The position numbers and the translations under genes were made by a program. Shown here in pieces: positions 1-7,782 of a stretch of 13,794 nucleotides of DNA. The stretch covers positions 1-13,794 of the forward strand of contig JACQMU010000121.1 of the NCBI GenBank assembly GCA_016203425.1, given 5' to 3'. Origin of the DNA: Candidatus Woesearchaeota archaeon (GTDB lineage: Archaea > Nanobdellota > Nanobdellia > Woesearchaeales > ARS49). The first letter of the stretch is position 1. Each line of letters opens with the position of its first letter. The notes under the pieces are model-generated. The model saw nothing but the letters and a program-made list of their open reading frames with translations, had not been told where the DNA came from and searched no databases.

Positions 1-1724
1 CCACTGGTAGACACACCCAGCGCAAGCTTGTAAACAAAAAATTCTGTTTTGTCTTTGTATCCTTTTGTTAAATCTTCAATTTCTTTTTTAACAGCAGGCG
101 GCATTTTTTTGAAATTCAGCAAAGCAAGAGGGTGAGCTTTGATGTAAGACGTAATAATAAATTCCTCTCTCGCAAGACCAACACCATCATTCGGCAAGAA
201 ACTCAAACTAAAAGCTTCATCAGGATTGCCAACATTCATCATAACTTTAGTCTTTGGCTTTTTCAGCAGTTTAAGATTAGTTTTTTTCACTCTAAATTTC
301 AACAAGCCATCATACACTTTACCCTGTTCACCTTCAGCACAACTCACAGTAATTTTTTGGTTGTTTTTGATAACTTCAGTAGCATTATTTGTGCCGACAA
401 CACAAGGAATTCCCAATTCACGAGAGATGATTGCTGCATGACAAGTTCTTCCCCCTTTATTTGTCACAATAGCACTTGCCATTTTCATAACAGGAACCCA
501 ATCAGGATCAGTCATTTCAGTAATGAGAACCTGGCCATCTTTGAATTGAGCTATGTCTTTTACATCTTTTATAACATTAGCAACACCCTGACCAATCTTT
601 TCACCAACACTCTTGCCAGTCGTCAGCACTTTGCCTTTTTGTTGTAAAATATACTCCTCAAGTACATTAACATTTTTTTGGCTTTGCACAGTTTCAGGAC
701 GGGCCTGCACGATAAACAATTGTTTTGTTTCACCATCCTTAGCCCACTCAATATCCATCGGACACCAATACTTGTGCTTCTTAGAATAATGATCTTCAAT
801 CACACAACCCCACTTCGCCAACTGCAAAATTTCTTTGCCATCAAGACAAAAACGCTCGCGGTCAGCCTTCTCAACAACAACATCCTTTGTAGTTCTTAAG
901 CCGCCATCCTCTGCATAAATTCTTTTAATTGCTTTTTCACCAATCTTTTTGCTAATAATCGGGTTAAAACCTTTCTTCAGCGTTGGCTTGAACACAAAAA
1001 ATTCATCAGGATTAACAGCACCCTGCACGATGTTTTCTCCCAAACCCCAACTGCCAGTAACGAAAACAACATCCTTAAAACCAGATTCTGTATCCAGCGT
1101 GAACATCACACCAGAACAAGCACGATCACTTCTCACCATTTTCTGAACACCAATACTCAATGCAACCTTAAAATGGTCAAACCCCTTTTCTTCACGATAA
1201 ACAATCGCACGATTAGTAAACAAAGAAGCAAAACAATCCTTGCACGCATCAATCAACTGCTCATCACCACAAATGTTGAGAAAAGTTTCCTGCTGGCCAG
1301 CAAAACTCGCACCAGGCAAGTCCTCAGCAGTAGCACTGCTTCTAACAGCAACATCAACATTGTCAGTTTTGTATGATTCAGAAAGCTGGTGATACGCAGC
1401 AACAATTTCTTTCCTCAAATTATCAGGAAACTTTGCATTACGAATAATCTCACGAACCTTTTTGCCGTGCTCTGACAAATTGTGCATGTTCTTAACATTC
1501 AATGTTTTTAGAACAGTTTTTATTTCATTCTTTATGCCGGCTTTGTCCAAAAGATAACGATAAGCAGTTGCCGTAACCGCAAAACCATTAGGCACACTAA
1601 CACCCTGTTTTGACAATTCACGATACATCTCACCCAAAGAAGCATTCTTTCCACCAACCAAAGGAACATCATCTATAGAGAGTTCGTCAAACCACAGAAT
1701 AAATTTCTTTGAGCGAGACACCAT
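1..1724 (-). CDS. ppsA: Phosphoenolpyruvate synthase (pyruvate, water dikinase), 3' end cut by window edge
   Basis: Makes phosphoenolpyruvate from pyruvate with ATP and water, releasing AMP and phosphate: the gluconeogenic entry step, in the cytoplasm. I read 574 codons on the minus strand without a stop. The N-terminal nucleotide-binding domain shows GGKNASLGEM (residues 24-33) and VRSSATAEDLPGASFAGQ (127-144). The phosphohistidine swivel domain shows GGRTCHAAIISRELGIP, with the phosphorylated His at residue 429 (bases 438-440). The start of the C-terminal PEP-binding barrel follows and is cut by the edge; the family is usually about 750-820 aa. Start is the ATG at 1722-1724, with a TATA box about 35 bases upstream and no Shine-Dalgarno, giving a leader of under 10 bases. 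Codons end mostly in T (GTT, GGT, GAT), unlike the plus-strand genes. Pyruvate phosphate dikinase is less likely, because the motif order and spacing match PpsA. Confidence 0.96.
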   Translation of the reverse strand, partial: MVSRSKKFILWFDELSIDDVPLVGGKNASLGEMYRELSKQGVSVPNGFAVTATAYRYLLDKAGIKNEIKTVLKTLNVKNMHNLSEHGKKVREIIRNAKFPDNLRKEIVAAYHQLSESYKTDNVDVAVRSSATAEDLPGASFAGQQETFLNICGDEQLIDACKDCFASLFTNRAIVYREEKGFDHFKVALSIGVQKMVRSDRACSGVMFTLDTESGFKDVVFVTGSWGLGENIVQGAVNPDEFFVFKPTLKKGFNPIISKKIGEKAIKRIYAEDGGLRTTKDVVVEKADRERFCLDGKEILQLAKWGCVIEDHYSKKHKYWCPMDIEWAKDGETKQLFIVQARPETVQSQKNVNVLEEYILQQKGKVLTTGKSVGEKIGQGVANVIKDVKDIAQFKDGQVLITEMTDPDWVPVMKMASAIVTNKGGRTCHAAIISRELGIPCVVGTNNATEVIKNNQKITVSCAEGEQGKVYDGLLKFRVKKTNLKLLKKPKTKVMMNVGNPDEAFSLSFLPNDGVGLAREEFIITSYIKAHPLALLNFKKMPPAVKKEIEDLTKGYKDKTEFFVYKLALGVSTS

Positions 1725-1801: not shown

Positions 1802-1951
1802 TACCGCTGCAGTTGACGGCACGACGGTCGTGTCGCCACGCTCCACGCCCTACGCGGTACTCCGAAGTGTTTCGAACCGTAGGTTCGTAACATATTACGA
1901 ATGCTTTACATTCGAAATAGGACAACCCTCCCCGCGTCGTGCGTCAGCAGC
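1802..1951. repeat. GC-rich palindromic intergenic element, chain of overlapping hairpins
   Basis: Noncoding, about 56% GC by hand count over 1801-1960, in an AT-rich surrounding. An outer imperfect inverted repeat brackets it: GCTGC/TGACG/CACGACG at 1806-1826 against CGTCGTG/CGTCA/GCAGC at 1935-1951, 17 pairs with bulges at 1811-1813 and 1819. Inside are four short hairpins in series: CGAA/TTCG (1863-1874), CGAACC/GGTTCG (1873-1887), CGTAA/TTACG (1886-1899) and CGAATG/CATTCG (1898-1914). Each shares its terminal CG with the next. A further 6-bp pair TACCGC/GCGGTA (1802-1807 with 1854-1859) competes with the outer stem. It sits between divergent promoters. It may be a dispersed palindromic repeat, a small RNA or a protein-binding array; the sequence alone does not decide. 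Confidence 0.7.
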
Positions 1952-1982
1952 GATGGTTGGTTGTTGATTGCCTGAACACACA

Positions 1983-2013: not shown

Positions 2014-2907
2014 ATGAGCCTTGAAAACGACATCAGCTGTTTGTACGCCGCAAAAAACTTTGCGCCACACTTGCAATTAAGACAGCCAGAACCAGTACAA
2101 CAATCACCATTCCTGACAAAACTAACTGAAATAATTGAAAAATACGGAAAAGAAGCGTGGAACAAAATTAAAGCACGAGAACAAGAACTACGAACATTAG
2201 AAGAAGGAACTGATGAAGAAGCAGAACAAATGCAATCAATCATTCTCGGATACTGCAAAAAAGCATGCGAGAAACTCGAAACAGAAATAACAAAAAAATA
2301 TGAACAATTAAGAAAACAAGGAAAAATAACTCCAGAAGACAAACAAACATACCACCAATTCATGGCAGAAACATCACCAGAATACGTGTTTCAGATGGCA
2401 TCAGGATTTGCACAAGAAGAAGGACAACAAAACCTTCCAGAACGCGAAAAACAAGCACGACAACAATCACAAGACTGGGCAAAAGAACAAAACAAAAAAC
2501 ATGAAGATTATTTAGCAACAGCAGGCATTAATACAGAAGAAGGAAAAATAGCGTGGACTGTAGCACATTCTGCAGCATATCACTTCAGCCAAAGAATATA
2601 TTTCAAAGACGAACACGAAGGAAAACAACAAGACAGATTACGCTTTGCTACAGAAACAACAATAAAACAAGAAGAACTCGAAGCAATGGTTTTGCCTGCA
2701 ATTTATGGCGGACTTTTGACTGCAGAATCTAACGCAATAATCACGAATAAAGACAAATTTCACGAGAAGACAACAGAATGGCTTTCAAAAGAAATAAAAG
2801 ACAGACTTTCTCAAGGAATAGAATTCAATTTACTTGATGCGGTTTATGTAAAAAAACTAAGCGACGGACAAATTGAATTAAAAGTTGACAAAAGAGAGAT
2901 ATATTAA
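2014..2907 (+). CDS. Hypothetical charged, mostly helical 297-aa protein
   Basis: I do not recognise this protein. It has no signal peptide and no membrane segment, so it is probably cytoplasmic. It is very rich in Glu, Lys and Gln. Long stretches from about residue 30 to 175 have the heptad-like charge pattern of extended helices or coiled coil, with a particularly Glu/Gln-rich part around residues 140-170. The C-terminal part (about 180-297) is less repetitive, contains the more hydrophobic stretch LEAMVLPAIYGGLLTAES, and ends in a beta-like segment. Two Cys (CKKAC) occur near residue 80, but no metal site is evident. The start at 2014 is chosen because a TATA box ends 24 bases before it. 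Codon use (ACA, GCA, GAA, CAA) matches the other plus-strand genes, so it looks native. It stands alone, convergent with the next gene. Confidence 0.8.
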   Translation: MSLENDISCLYAAKNFAPHLQLRQPEPVQQSPFLTKLTEIIEKYGKEAWNKIKAREQELRTLEEGTDEEAEQMQSIILGYCKKACEKLETEITKKYEQLRKQGKITPEDKQTYHQFMAETSPEYVFQMASGFAQEEGQQNLPEREKQARQQSQDWAKEQNKKHEDYLATAGINTEEGKIAWTVAHSAAYHFSQRIYFKDEHEGKQQDRLRFATETTIKQEELEAMVLPAIYGGLLTAESNAIITNKDKFHEKTTEWLSKEIKDRLSQGIEFNLLDAVYVKKLSDGQIELKVDKREIY

Positions 2908-5671: not shown

Positions 5672-6340
5672 CTATAAAAAAGCTTTCATTATAGCAGGAT
5701 ATTCCTTCAAACTTTTTACAGCAACATCTGGCTTTTCTTTTTCCAACGAGCTTATTGGAAAAGAACCAGTAGCAACAGCCACAGTACTAACGTTCGCAGC
5801 TTTGCCAGCCAGAATGTCACTCGGAGTATCACCAACAACAATAATTTTTTTACAACCAAAATTATTTTGTGCAATCAAAACTGCACGCTTAACAATAGAA
5901 TTGCGGTCATCATGCCCAGAATCACAGCTTATTACCGAGAAAAAACCAAGCAAACCAGCATTTTTCAAAATATTTCTTGCAGGAACTTCAAAATTACCAG
6001 TAACAACACCCAAACAAGCATTTTGTTTTTGCAATTCAGTAAGAAAATTAACAACACCATTCAAAGGAACAATTTTGTGCTTTTTAGCTTCTTCAGCAAA
6101 AAAACGCTGGTGGAGAGCAACAACATCATCAATTGTTTTTTGCGCACAAGAAATTCCAACAGCGCCAAAAACCAGTTCATGACCCTTTGTCGCAGGCATG
6201 CCAAAACGGCTTGCAATAATCTTGTCAGGAACAATTTTTCCAGTAACACTTTCATAAGCTCTTCTGTAAGCAGCAATATGAATAGCAACAGTATCAACAA
6301 GCGTGCCATCCACGTCAAACAACCATGCGAGTTTTGTCAT
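5672..6340 (-). CDS. HAD-superfamily phosphatase, phosphoglycolate-phosphatase-like
   Basis: This hydrolase family removes phosphate from small metabolites through an aspartyl-phosphate intermediate. Motif I is LFDVDGTLVD, with nucleophile Asp9 and acid/base Asp11. A helical cap follows (about 17-85). Motif II is GVVTGNFE, the motif III Lys lies in SIVKRAVL, and motif IV is VVGDTPSDILAGKAANVSTVAV, so all catalytic elements are present. The 222-aa length is typical of the Gph/PgmB-like branch, but the true substrate cannot be read from sequence. I chose the ATG at 6338-6340 over an upstream in-frame TTG at 6361, because a TATA box (6364-6372) sits about 28 bases before the ATG, implying a leaderless mRNA. 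It is the first gene of the operon with cca and nurA. Confidence 0.9.
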   Translation of the reverse strand: MTKLAWLFDVDGTLVDTVAIHIAAYRRAYESVTGKIVPDKIIASRFGMPATKGHELVFGAVGISCAQKTIDDVVALHQRFFAEEAKKHKIVPLNGVVNFLTELQKQNACLGVVTGNFEVPARNILKNAGLLGFFSVISCDSGHDDRNSIVKRAVLIAQNNFGCKKIIVVGDTPSDILAGKAANVSTVAVATGSFPISSLEKEKPDVAVKSLKEYPAIMKAFL

Positions 6341-6363
6341 TTTTCTTACCTGCGAAAGCAAGC

Positions 6364-6372
6364 TTAATAAAT
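6364..6372. promoter_or_regulatory. Shared AT-box between HAD operon and antiporter gene
   Basis: On the minus strand ATTTATTAA is centred about 28 bases before the HAD ATG and predicts a leaderless HAD-cca-nurA transcript. On the plus strand the same bases read TTAATAAAT, about 40 bases before the antiporter ATG, and would give it a leader of roughly 15 bases. One box may serve both directions. A second plus-strand candidate, TAATTTAAAA near 6387, lies too close to the start codon to fit the usual spacing. Confidence 0.5.
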
Positions 6373-6408
6373 GTTGAGGTCATACATAATTTAAAAAAGG
6401 GGAAAATC

Positions 6409-7578
6409 ATGAACATATTACAACCTATTCTCTCATTAATAATACTACTTGCAATTACGCACTGTGTTAAACAAATTGCACAAAAACTCACAATCCCAAC
6501 ACCACTTATCGCACTAATTACAGGTTTCTTACTTACGGAAGTTTACAGAATAATGCCAATTCAGCTTCCAAGTGACTTTTTTTCAACACTTGTTCTAATA
6601 CTATTCATCCTGCTCGTCTTTGAAAGTACAGCAAGACTCAAGCTGTCAGCAACAGACACAACAGCAGCACACTCGCTGGCATTCATTGTTTTATTTGCAA
6701 GCTTAATTTTTGTCGGGCTATCTCTCACGGCAAAGCCATTCCTAAACATAACACCAATATCAAGCGTCATCCTCGCAGCAGCACTGCTTGGAGTCTCAGC
6801 AGAACTCCTGCCAAACATAAAAACCCTGCCACACAGCGAAGCACTAATCAGGCTCGAGGCATTCTGGACAACACCAATATCGCTGATAGTTCCAATAGTT
6901 ATTGCCATGCTCATACCCCCAGTAACAACAATCTTTGTATCAGACACCATCAACTTTTTCCTCTTCACGACAATAAAATTCATTGCCAGCATTGCAACAG
7001 GAGTCTTTGTAGGCATACTCTTTGCAAAACTCCTCACGCACACAAAAACAGCATTTGTGCCACCACTTATCATAGCAACAGCATTTATTGCATTTGCCCT
7101 TGGCACACTCTGGGGACACGGCATCCTTGCAACAGCAGCATTCGGGCTATTTTTCACGAACGCATTTGCAACAACACACAAGCCATTTGTGCAACTCAAC
7201 CACAAACTAACAAATTATGCAGGCATCCTTGCAGTCATCCTCCTCGGAAGCACAGCACGCTTGCAGTTAACACCAAATTTCATTACACTATCAGCAGCAC
7301 TCTTTTCAAGTTACATCGTGATAAGATATGTAGCGATACGAATAAGCCACAAAAAACACGCATTCTCAAAAACAGAAAACAAGCTCATGACATTTTATGC
7401 GCCAGCAAGCGAAGCACAATGTGCACTATTTTTGTTTTTAGCAACATTCCCACCAACAAGCATACCACTTGCAGAACTTAAGCCAATCATAAGCATAGGA
7501 ATAATGTTTGTGCTCTACTCAAACATACTTGCATTCGCAATCATACAAGCACCACAAATATTAAAAGTAAGGAAATAA
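6409..7578 (+). CDS. CPA-type cation/proton antiporter-like membrane protein
   Basis: An integral membrane protein of 389 aa with about 11-12 hydrophobic segments from residue 4 to 380, layered like the Na+/H+ exchanger (CPA1/CPA2) fold. FESTARLKL near 71-79 resembles the family FExGL motif, and SAELLPNIK near 130-138 sits where ATDPVAV is expected. LIRLEAFWTTPIS (147-158) sits where ESLLNDA is expected, and HGILATAAFGLFFTNAFA (237-254) resembles a later family helix. The ND ion-binding pair appears to be Thr-Thr here and the TDP Asp appears as Glu132, so ion specificity or even transport is uncertain. Start is the ATG at 6409, preceded by a purine-rich AAAAAAGGGGAAAATC. It is divergent from the HAD operon and monocistronic. 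A Kef-like channel or sensor is an alternative. Confidence 0.78.
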   Translation: MNILQPILSLIILLAITHCVKQIAQKLTIPTPLIALITGFLLTEVYRIMPIQLPSDFFSTLVLILFILLVFESTARLKLSATDTTAAHSLAFIVLFASLIFVGLSLTAKPFLNITPISSVILAAALLGVSAELLPNIKTLPHSEALIRLEAFWTTPISLIVPIVIAMLIPPVTTIFVSDTINFFLFTTIKFIASIATGVFVGILFAKLLTHTKTAFVPPLIIATAFIAFALGTLWGHGILATAAFGLFFTNAFATTHKPFVQLNHKLTNYAGILAVILLGSTARLQLTPNFITLSAALFSSYIVIRYVAIRISHKKHAFSKTENKLMTFYAPASEAQCALFLFLATFPPTSIPLAELKPIISIGIMFVLYSNILAFAIIQAPQILKVRK

Positions 7579-7609: not shown

Positions 7610-7782
7610 GCGCCGACAAGGGCGGTGCGACGCGTTGCTTCGCAACGCTATTCGGCATCCCGAAGGGAGCAACCCCTGCCTCATCGCACGCCACGTCGGC
7701 GCCGACGAGCCGAGGGTTGGCTCCTACGGAGTGGCGAGTAGGTCATGAAGCAGTCATGACCGTAGGCGCCATTGTGGTGGCG
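7610..7782. repeat. GC-rich palindromic intergenic element, nested and overlapping hairpins
   Basis: About 66% GC by hand count over 7611-7790, against AT-rich flanks; noncoding. Stems seen: GCGCCGAC 7610-7617 with GTCGGCGC 7695-7702; GTGCGA 7625-7630 with TCGCAC 7684-7689; GCGTTGC/GCAACGC 7632-7648; TTCGG/CCGAA 7651-7664; GGAGCAACCC 7666-7675 with 7714-7724 (one bulge). Further right: a perfect 12-base palindrome GTCGGCGCCGAC 7695-7706; GAGCC/GGCTC 7707-7723; GGTCATGA/TCATGACC 7741-7761; CCTACGG/CCGTAGG 7723-7766; CGCCA/TGGCG 7767-7782. Several stems are mutually exclusive or overlap by two bases, as in the element at 1802-1951. It lies just upstream of the PIN-gene promoter. Function unknown. 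Confidence 0.7.

What the first reader, a model, noticed from the sequence alone, without database searches (positions are those of the whole stretch)
1802..1951. Chain of four palindromes, each overlapping the next by CG, inside a bracketed element
Hairpins at 1863-1874, 1873-1887, 1886-1899 and 1898-1914 follow each other with a shared CG at every junction, so neighbours compete for those two bases. A 17-pair imperfect inverted repeat (1806-1826 with 1935-1951) encloses the set. Such a regular chain is unlikely by chance and is neither a normal terminator nor a tRNA. Possible roles are a dispersed palindromic repeat, a structured small RNA, or a row of protein-binding sites next to two divergent promoters.
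Basis: partly seen in the sequence, partly recalled or inferred. Interest (0 to 1): 0.7.

Follow-up and report, generated by a model that had tools for sequence, protein, structure and literature searches.

The report
Dispersed structured repeat of Woesearchaeota
The odd string of palindromes is part of one copy of an apparently uncatalogued family of structured, probably mobile DNA repeats scattered between genes in many Woesearchaeota genomes; evolution has kept its folded shape, but which molecule (RNA or single-stranded DNA) uses that shape is not known.

Summary
The palindromes are real, but the reading changes. Window 1803-1954 is one of at least 22 copies in this incomplete 0.87-Mb archaeal genome of a dispersed structured repeat; 93 of 352 genomes of the order carry it, and 13 of 15 named pattern hits are Woesearchaeota. 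No Rfam family reached its cut-off. Compensatory changes establish a fold: outer stem P1, a three-way junction, hairpin P2, and an arm P3/P4 with a G-rich internal loop. The folded strand is the minus strand: G.U exceeds A.C, and a P3 site is either tandem GA/GA (110 of 188 elements) or Watson-Crick (70).

The "four hairpins sharing CG" are two longer tandem hairpins on P4, each with a 4-bp arm, a 1x1 mismatch and an inner stem. Because their arms are alike, the other two palindromes arise as by-products; relatives changed the arms with compensation. Competition for CG is not supported.

Nearly all copies are intergenic, they come and go between sister species, and 45 of 45 close pairs are head-to-head, mostly sharing about 15 nt. 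Best explanation: a non-autonomous, REPIN-like mobile repeat. The mobilising enzyme is unknown: a Y1 transposase is only statistically associated and was not detected here.

The parts
1803..1954 (-). whole element (folded strand is minus)
   Evidence: covariance-model match R1 at 1803-1954, E 6.4e-14; strand
1937..1952 (-). P1 outer stem, 5' arm (CGCTGC-TGAC-GCACGA)
   Evidence: located; helix 1 of the covariation counts
1805..1824 (-). P1 outer stem, 3' arm (TCGTGC-GTCA-GCAGCG)
   Evidence: located; covariation
1932..1936 (-). P3 5' strand; this copy has the Watson-Crick (GC/GC) version of the tandem GA site
   Evidence: location; site counts
1853..1857 (-). P3 3' strand
   Evidence: location; site counts
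1923..1931 (-). conserved G-rich internal loop (GGGGNTG in most aligned copies; GGAGGGTTG here)
   Evidence: alignments; location
1920..1922 (-). P4 stem 5' strand (TCC), pairs with GGA 1861-1863
1861..1863 (-). P4 stem 3' strand (GGA)
   Evidence: covariation; MFE folds
1826..1850 (-). P2 hairpin
   Evidence: helix 4; location
7610..7702 (-). second copy in the window, partner A of a head-to-head pair
   Evidence: C54:7610-7702, folded strand minus
7687..7781 (+). third copy in the window, partner B, sharing about 15 nt with partner A
   Evidence: R1 '-' match, so folded strand +; L018:1579-1674 +
3..1724 (-). flanking gene: PPDK_N / PEP-utilizers protein (pyruvate phosphate dikinase / PEP synthase-like), cut by the window end
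2014..2907 (+). flanking gene, 297 aa from the ATG chosen, no Pfam match

Best explanation
1803-1954 is one copy of a family of dispersed, non-coding, structured repeats of Woesearchaeota that behaves like a non-autonomous mobile element of the REP/REPIN kind. Shown: multiple copies; a fold kept by compensatory changes; the minus strand is the folded strand; mostly intergenic placement; presence/absence and one subtype replacement between two sister species; head-to-head close pairs. Inferred: the fold of one strand, as single-stranded DNA or as RNA, is recognised (perhaps through the G-rich internal loop and P3/P4) by a protein acting in trans that copies or moves the unit, in its fullest form the head-to-head pair of about 190 nt, into promoter-bearing gaps. 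The loop of P4 tolerates extra hairpins; in this copy it carries two, and these two are the reported chain.
For: Copies: 22 in the own genome at E below 0.001; 17, 16, 23 and 36 matches in G204, G205, G302 and G146; 93 of 352 genomes of the order. Fold: 27 of 31 pairs with changes on both sides, covariation 0.503 against 0.160 shuffled and at most 0.105 slid (alignment fitted to the model); MAFFT alignment of 21 copies on the other strand 92.5% paired, 18 of 30 pairs doubly changed. Strand: read on the minus strand GU 54 against AC 15, although that model was built on +; GU 138 against AC 63 on 188 elements fitted to the minus-strand model; P3 site GA/GA 110, Watson-Crick 70, other 8 of 188. 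Turnover: of 13 sites of G204, 2 keep the element in sister species G205, 1 holds another subtype, 6 lack it, 4 unclear. Codirectional gaps: 10 against 8, no orientation bias. 45 of 45 pairs under 60 nt apart are head-to-head. Two-hairpin reading of the chain.
Against: No target-site duplication was seen. No mobilising gene was found beside the elements: around 75 loci, apart from frames that run through the element, no protein recurred in more than 4 loci. Y1 transposase (PF01797) co-occurs (49 of 93 carriers against 70 of 259 others), but none was detected in G000 or G204 at E up to 1e-6. At the two conserved loci the fold is largely kept since the species split (of 112 pairs 5 compensatory, 2 one-sided, 3 broken), which fits selection at the locus or gene conversion as well as mobility. 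Over all 34 single copies the downstream gene is codirectional in 25 (p 0.009); this comes from 15 divergent against 1 convergent gap, but a bias towards sites upstream of genes is real and could reflect function. Three neighbour pairs 148-2863 nt apart are not head-to-head (two ++, one +-). Four of 188 elements lie wholly inside open frames over 900 nt.
Confidence: 0.62

Rival explanations
1. A multicopy structured non-coding RNA family: each copy is transcribed from the folded strand and works as an RNA, for example by binding a protein.
For: Strand-specific fold with G.U pairs and tandem G.A; compensatory changes at loci shared by two sister species; an NUNCG loop of P4 (130 of 188 elements matched a pattern that itself requires it).
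Against: Flat composition upstream of 45 single copies (coarse, in 5-nt bins); 34 of 45 close pairs overlap in their 5' arms, so each promoter would lie inside the other; patchy distribution (5 of 37 genomes, own included); no Rfam match at the cut-off.
Confidence: 0.17
2. A cis-acting element of promoters or transcripts (regulatory leader, terminator, or a row of protein-binding sites between divergent genes).
For: Among 34 single copies 15 lie in divergent gaps and 1 in a convergent gap, and the downstream gene is codirectional in 25 of 34 (p 0.009); in this window it lies between two divergent genes.
Against: In codirectional gaps orientation is even (10 against 8); six orthologous gaps of a sister species lack it; the two flanking genes look leaderless, so the element would not be in their mRNA (inference).
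Confidence: 0.11
3. A narrower form of the best explanation: the mobilising enzyme is an IS200/IS605-type (Y1, HUH) transposase, so this is an archaeal counterpart of REP/RAYT.
For: Statistical association with PF01797 (odds ratio 3.0, p 1.2e-5; Y1 in 119 of 352 genomes); one Y1 gene lies about 50 nt upstream of an element in the same orientation (L079); one strand is folded and partners are inverted, as in REPINs.
Against: That Y1 element seems to have hairpin ends of its own with the repeat outside them (my reading); 0 of 6 other Y1 loci examined (of the many) carry an element within the up to 1.5 kb of flank held; G000 and G204 have no Y1 match and G000 no TnpB match; the association is confounded by mobilome size and assembly quality.
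Confidence: 0.25
4. A chance arrangement of palindromes.
For: A chain of four short CG-sharing hairpins turns up in 10 of 60 shuffles of the whole window.
Against: Homologous copies with compensatory changes in other genomes.
Confidence: 0.01

Closest known systems
REP / REPIN / BIME repeats with RAYT (TnpA-REP) transposases of bacteria
   Same: Short, non-coding, dispersed between genes, palindromic, inverted doublets, many copies, single-strand fold presumed (abstract of PMC3116915; passages of PMC3733652 and PMC6006769).
   Different: REPs are 20-40 bp with a GTAG-type foot and RAYT genes flanked by REPs (same passages); here about 100 nt with a three-way junction, a conserved internal loop and a tandem G.A site, in archaea, with no REPtron found; most close partners overlap by about 15 nt.
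CGTC-tagged palindromic repeats
   Same: Dispersed palindromes, often in dimers, with no dedicated transposase found (passages of PMC3733652).
   Different: Small hairpins in bacterial phyla; a three-way junction is not mentioned in the passages seen. A CCGTC stretch is conserved here too, but no relation was tested.
MITEs and RU/ERIC-like repeats
   Same: Non-autonomous, intergenic, about 100-200 bp (search listings of PMC10969869 and PMC2759123 only).
   Different: No terminal inverted repeat of fixed sequence and no target-site duplication seen; P1 length and sequence vary between copies.
Integron attC sites (recalled, no call)
   Same: One strand folds and is used as single-stranded DNA.
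   Different: No cassette arrays seen: copies are scattered. The attC boxes were not tested.

Membership tests
REP/REPIN with RAYT | dispersed, mostly intergenic multicopy palindrome | tested here: met
   4 of 188 elements lie wholly inside open frames over 900 nt
REP/REPIN with RAYT | inverted doublets as a common arrangement | tested here: met
   45 of 45 pairs under 60 nt apart are head-to-head
REP/REPIN with RAYT | 20-40 bp simple hairpin with GTAG/GGAG foot | tested here: not met
   about 100-nt three-way junction with variable P1 ends
REP/REPIN with RAYT | RAYT (Y1) gene flanked by the repeat | tested here: not met
   one adjacency, one side only (L079); 0 of 6 other Y1 loci examined; no Y1 match in G000 or G204. 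Most Y1 loci were not examined.
REP/REPIN with RAYT | cleavage and rejoining by the transposase | not testable with these tools
   needs biochemistry
MITE | terminal inverted repeats plus target-site duplication | tested here: inconclusive
   inverted ends exist (P1), but no duplication is visible at the aligned empty sites; the gaps are too diverged for a firm negative
known RNA family (Rfam 15) | score above the gathering cut-off | tested here: not met
   whole window: 0 matches at gathering score; E-value scans of the window copy and two canonical copies gave only matches far below their gathering scores
IS605/TnpB-associated RNA | TnpB gene in the genome | tested here: not met
   PF07282: 0 matches in the own genome, which is 82.5% complete; other genomes not tested

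The most novel reading that the evidence does not exclude
An RNA-centred mobile or selfish element of archaea: a catalytic or protein-bound RNA with a three-way junction (tandem sheared G.A switch, NUNCG loop, G-rich internal loop), spread in head-to-head overlapping pairs without a transposase gene of its own, whose P4 loop collects hairpin modules shared between lineages.
Probability: 0.18. Interest if true: 0.85.

Novelty: new variant of a known kind. Interest (0 to 1): 0.62.

Why it matters
It is a large, strongly covarying and, as far as six literature searches and Rfam show, undescribed repeat family in an order of small-genome archaea. The alignments and models here give a test set for two open questions: how palindromic repeats spread without an adjacent transposase, and whether such folds act as RNA or as single-stranded DNA. 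It may also break draft assemblies: some copies lie at contig ends.

Tried and rejected
Stand-alone ncRNA gene with its own promoter: composition upstream of 45 single copies is flat; downstream it is AT-rich. Rfam: nothing at the cut-off, weak chance-level matches only. Partner protein by clustering frames of 75 loci: mostly frames through the element; of real genes the largest cluster has 4 loci, two of them the same place, and a serine-hydrolase gene (PF06821) recurs at 3 loci. Genes lying between neighbouring copies look ordinary by reading (no Pfam run on these). Y1 transposase: association only. A flank motif (AAGTNNACTT: 6 in about 14 kb of flanks against 20 in 1.16 Mb of G205) also occurs in a similar form in an empty site and looks promoter-proximal; not pursued. 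A perfect four-way junction for the chain was my first correction (96.4% paired, covariation 0.119, 121 of 500 shuffles as high); I dropped it for the two-hairpin model (98.8%, 0.198, 10 of 500; then). Viral contigs by two exact patterns: 0; plasmids and phages by distant blastn of one canonical copy: 0. Literature: six searches listed no report of this family; most subscription papers are not held.

Rows dropped and limits: one search counted only sites with both flanking ORFs within 400 nt and left out ORFs overlapping the element (34 single copies, 17 pairs); three duplicate loci were skipped. In one search, of 20 main-strand rows 15 met my hairpin thresholds (14 distinct modules) and 5 did not (L274 has an extra insert; L280, L282-L284); 8 opposite-strand shadow rows were dropped. 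That script picks the best-pairing segments, so the amount of pairing leans upwards; the variety of pair types is the evidence. Alignments A3, A5, A7 and A8 are fitted to models. Copy numbers are floors (at most 10-11 candidates scored per genome). In one search the C20 gap of G205 holds an element-like remnant, counted as unclear.

Full report
Observation. The palindromes and the enclosing inverted repeat are at the stated places. The 166-nt region 1795-1960 folds better than 199 of 200 shuffles on either strand. The chain as such is only moderately unusual: 1 of 400 shuffles of the region, but 10 of 60 shuffles of the whole window, contain a chain of four or more hairpins with stems of at least 4 bp overlapping by 2 nt. 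The stretch lies between a PEP-synthase-like gene on the minus strand (start 1724) and a gene of unknown family on the plus strand (from 2014).

Copies. blastn of 1795-1960 in the own genome (865 kb, 168 contigs, 82.5% complete) gave 5 places, the window's own included. A covariance model of five copies (R1) gave 23 matches up to E 10, 22 of them below 0.001; two more lie in the window itself at 7610-7702 and 7687-7781. Of 37 genomes (own included) 5 carry the element. A minus-strand model (R2, 21 copies) found it in 93 of 352 genomes of the order at E up to 1e-3 and in 45 of 371 genomes of a phylum sample at E up to 1e-5, all 45 of the same order. An exact pattern over named species genomes hit 15 contigs: 13 Woesearchaeota, 1 Nanoarchaeota, 1 labelled Desulfobacteraceae. 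Viral, phage and plasmid collections gave none with the queries used. No Rfam family reached its gathering score in the window, and E-value scans gave only matches far below theirs.

Fold. On 42 copies aligned to R1, 87.3% of cells pair, 27 of 31 pairs show changes on both sides, and the covariation score is 0.503 against 0.160 for shuffles and at most 0.105 for slid partners. On 21 copies aligned by MAFFT on the other strand, 92.5% pair and 18 of 30 pairs are doubly changed. Read on the minus strand: outer stem P1; P3, stacked directly on P1; a G-rich internal loop, mostly GGGGNTG; P4; back through P3; usually one A; hairpin P2; GU; back into P1. P1 varies in length and sequence and extends further in some copies.

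Which strand. With the plus-strand model, non-Watson-Crick cells read on the minus strand are 54 G.U against 15 A.C. Over 188 distinct elements G.U is 138 against 63 A.C (these alignments were fitted to the minus-strand model). At the P3 tandem site GA/GA occurs in 110, Watson-Crick pairs in 70 and other combinations in 8 of 188. Tandem G.A between C-G pairs is a stable motif in RNA and in DNA (recalled), so this fixes the strand but not the molecule. The window copy has the GC/GC version.

The chain. In this copy and one other in the genome, P4 is not closed by a simple loop (NUNCG in the 130 of 188 elements that matched a pattern requiring it) but carries the chain. The chain sequence is also found in G294, another family of the order, where by my reading it sits at the same place on a P3/P4-like core; the R2 model does not match there, and over 17 such loci R2 gave only two weak matches elsewhere, so the outer parts differ. 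A model of the chain (R3) found 10 copies in G294, 4 in G208, 3 in G207, the 2 in G000 (plus 2 opposite-strand shadows) and 1 weak match in G028: 5 of 336 genomes. Minimum-energy folds give the two hairpins in the window copy as RNA and as DNA and in part or in full in the three others folded, and covariation favours them. Over 14 distinct modules the 4-bp arms occur as A-T, T-A, G-C and C-G pairs, for example HpA arm pair 2 GC 9, CG 3, AT 1, TA 1, and HpB arm pair 2 GC 8, CG 5, TA 1; the 1x1 position is unpaired in 27 of 28 cases. Other copies carry other extra sequence in the P4 loop (L015, L019, L024; L036; L046).

Place and turnover. Elements lie between genes as far as frames show, but 4 of 188 lie wholly inside open frames over 900 nt. 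In two of these the Pfam domain starts well beyond the element (L030, L055), which suggests a frame extended upstream; L067 (no Pfam match) and L188 (not scanned) are unresolved. Of 34 single copies with both neighbours within 400 nt, 15 are in divergent gaps, 10 and 8 in the two codirectional orientations, 1 in a convergent gap, so that the downstream gene is codirectional in 25 of 34 (p 0.009) although orientation within codirectional gaps is even; of 17 pairs, 9 codirectional, 6 divergent, 2 convergent. Of 188 elements, the 45 pairs under 60 nt apart are all head-to-head in the folded-strand sense: 34 overlap by 13-18 nt (26 of them by 15) and 11 are separated by 11-26 nt; three further neighbour pairs at 148, 2473 and 2863 nt are ++, ++ and +-. 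In G204 and G205, two species of one genus (most flank matches about 85-92% identical), 13 G204 sites were compared: 2 keep the element, 1 has a different subtype in the same gap, 5 lack it with the flanks nearly adjoining, 1 has unrelated sequence instead, 4 could not be decided. At the two conserved loci (four elements, 112 pairs) 5 pairs changed on both sides, 2 on one side and 3 were broken: locus selection or gene conversion.

Mechanism. The best-supported reading is a non-autonomous mobile repeat whose one-strand fold is the substrate of a protein acting in trans. Y1 transposase genes are over-represented in carriers (49 of 93 against 70 of 259; odds ratio 3.0, p 1.2e-5), but the own genome and G204 have none detected, TnpB was not found in the own genome, and the one close neighbour (L079) appears to be an IS200-type element with hairpin ends of its own. 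So the enzyme is open.

Known relatives. REPINs are the nearest kind: inverted doublets, intergenic, thought to fold as single strands (abstract of PMC3116915; passages of PMC3733652 and PMC6006769). The element fails the tested REP definitions (small hairpin with GTAG foot, RAYT gene flanked by the repeat), so it works like a REPIN but is not filed as one. Six literature searches listed nothing on this family.

Noticed in passing
window 7610-7781: A head-to-head pair of the same element lies between the 417-aa ORF 6325-7578 (no Pfam match) and a PIN-domain gene.
   Followed up: yes
L075:1881-1959 (JAUVVL010000057.1): A partial core copy lies on a contig labelled Desulfobacteraceae; misbinned archaeal contig or horizontal transfer was not resolved.
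   Followed up: no
G204/G205 loci, e.g. flanks in L097, L099 and L175: Another repeat of about 80 nt (for example G205 C6:382510, C13:130434, C13:80343) recurs near some element sites.
   Followed up: no
flanks of elements; G205 gap matching G204 C39: An AAGTNNACTT / TTTACTTTA-like motif is enriched next to elements, near apparent promoters; possibly a regulator site.
   Followed up: partly
L268-L284 (G294, G208, G207): A larger element class carries the two-hairpin module on a P3/P4-like core but has different outer arms; it looks like a sister family of the repeat.
   Followed up: partly
L079:3596-4027: IS200-like Y1 transposase gene (PF01797) about 50 nt upstream of an element in the same orientation, with CCCCGCC-type hairpins around it.
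   Followed up: partly
L062, L063, L084: Serine-hydrolase (PF06821-type) genes recur near elements at three loci of three genomes (L062 member not scanned).
   Followed up: partly
L067:1501-1601 and L188:4723-4869: Two elements lie wholly inside long open frames with no known domain shown; true intragenic insertion was not resolved.
   Followed up: partly
L012, L025, L028 (G000 contig C6 ends); L198 and L199 at 14-111: Copies sit at contig ends, and the copies at the starts of G212 C33 and C35 are identical, so the repeat probably breaks assemblies and copy numbers may be underestimates.
   Followed up: partly
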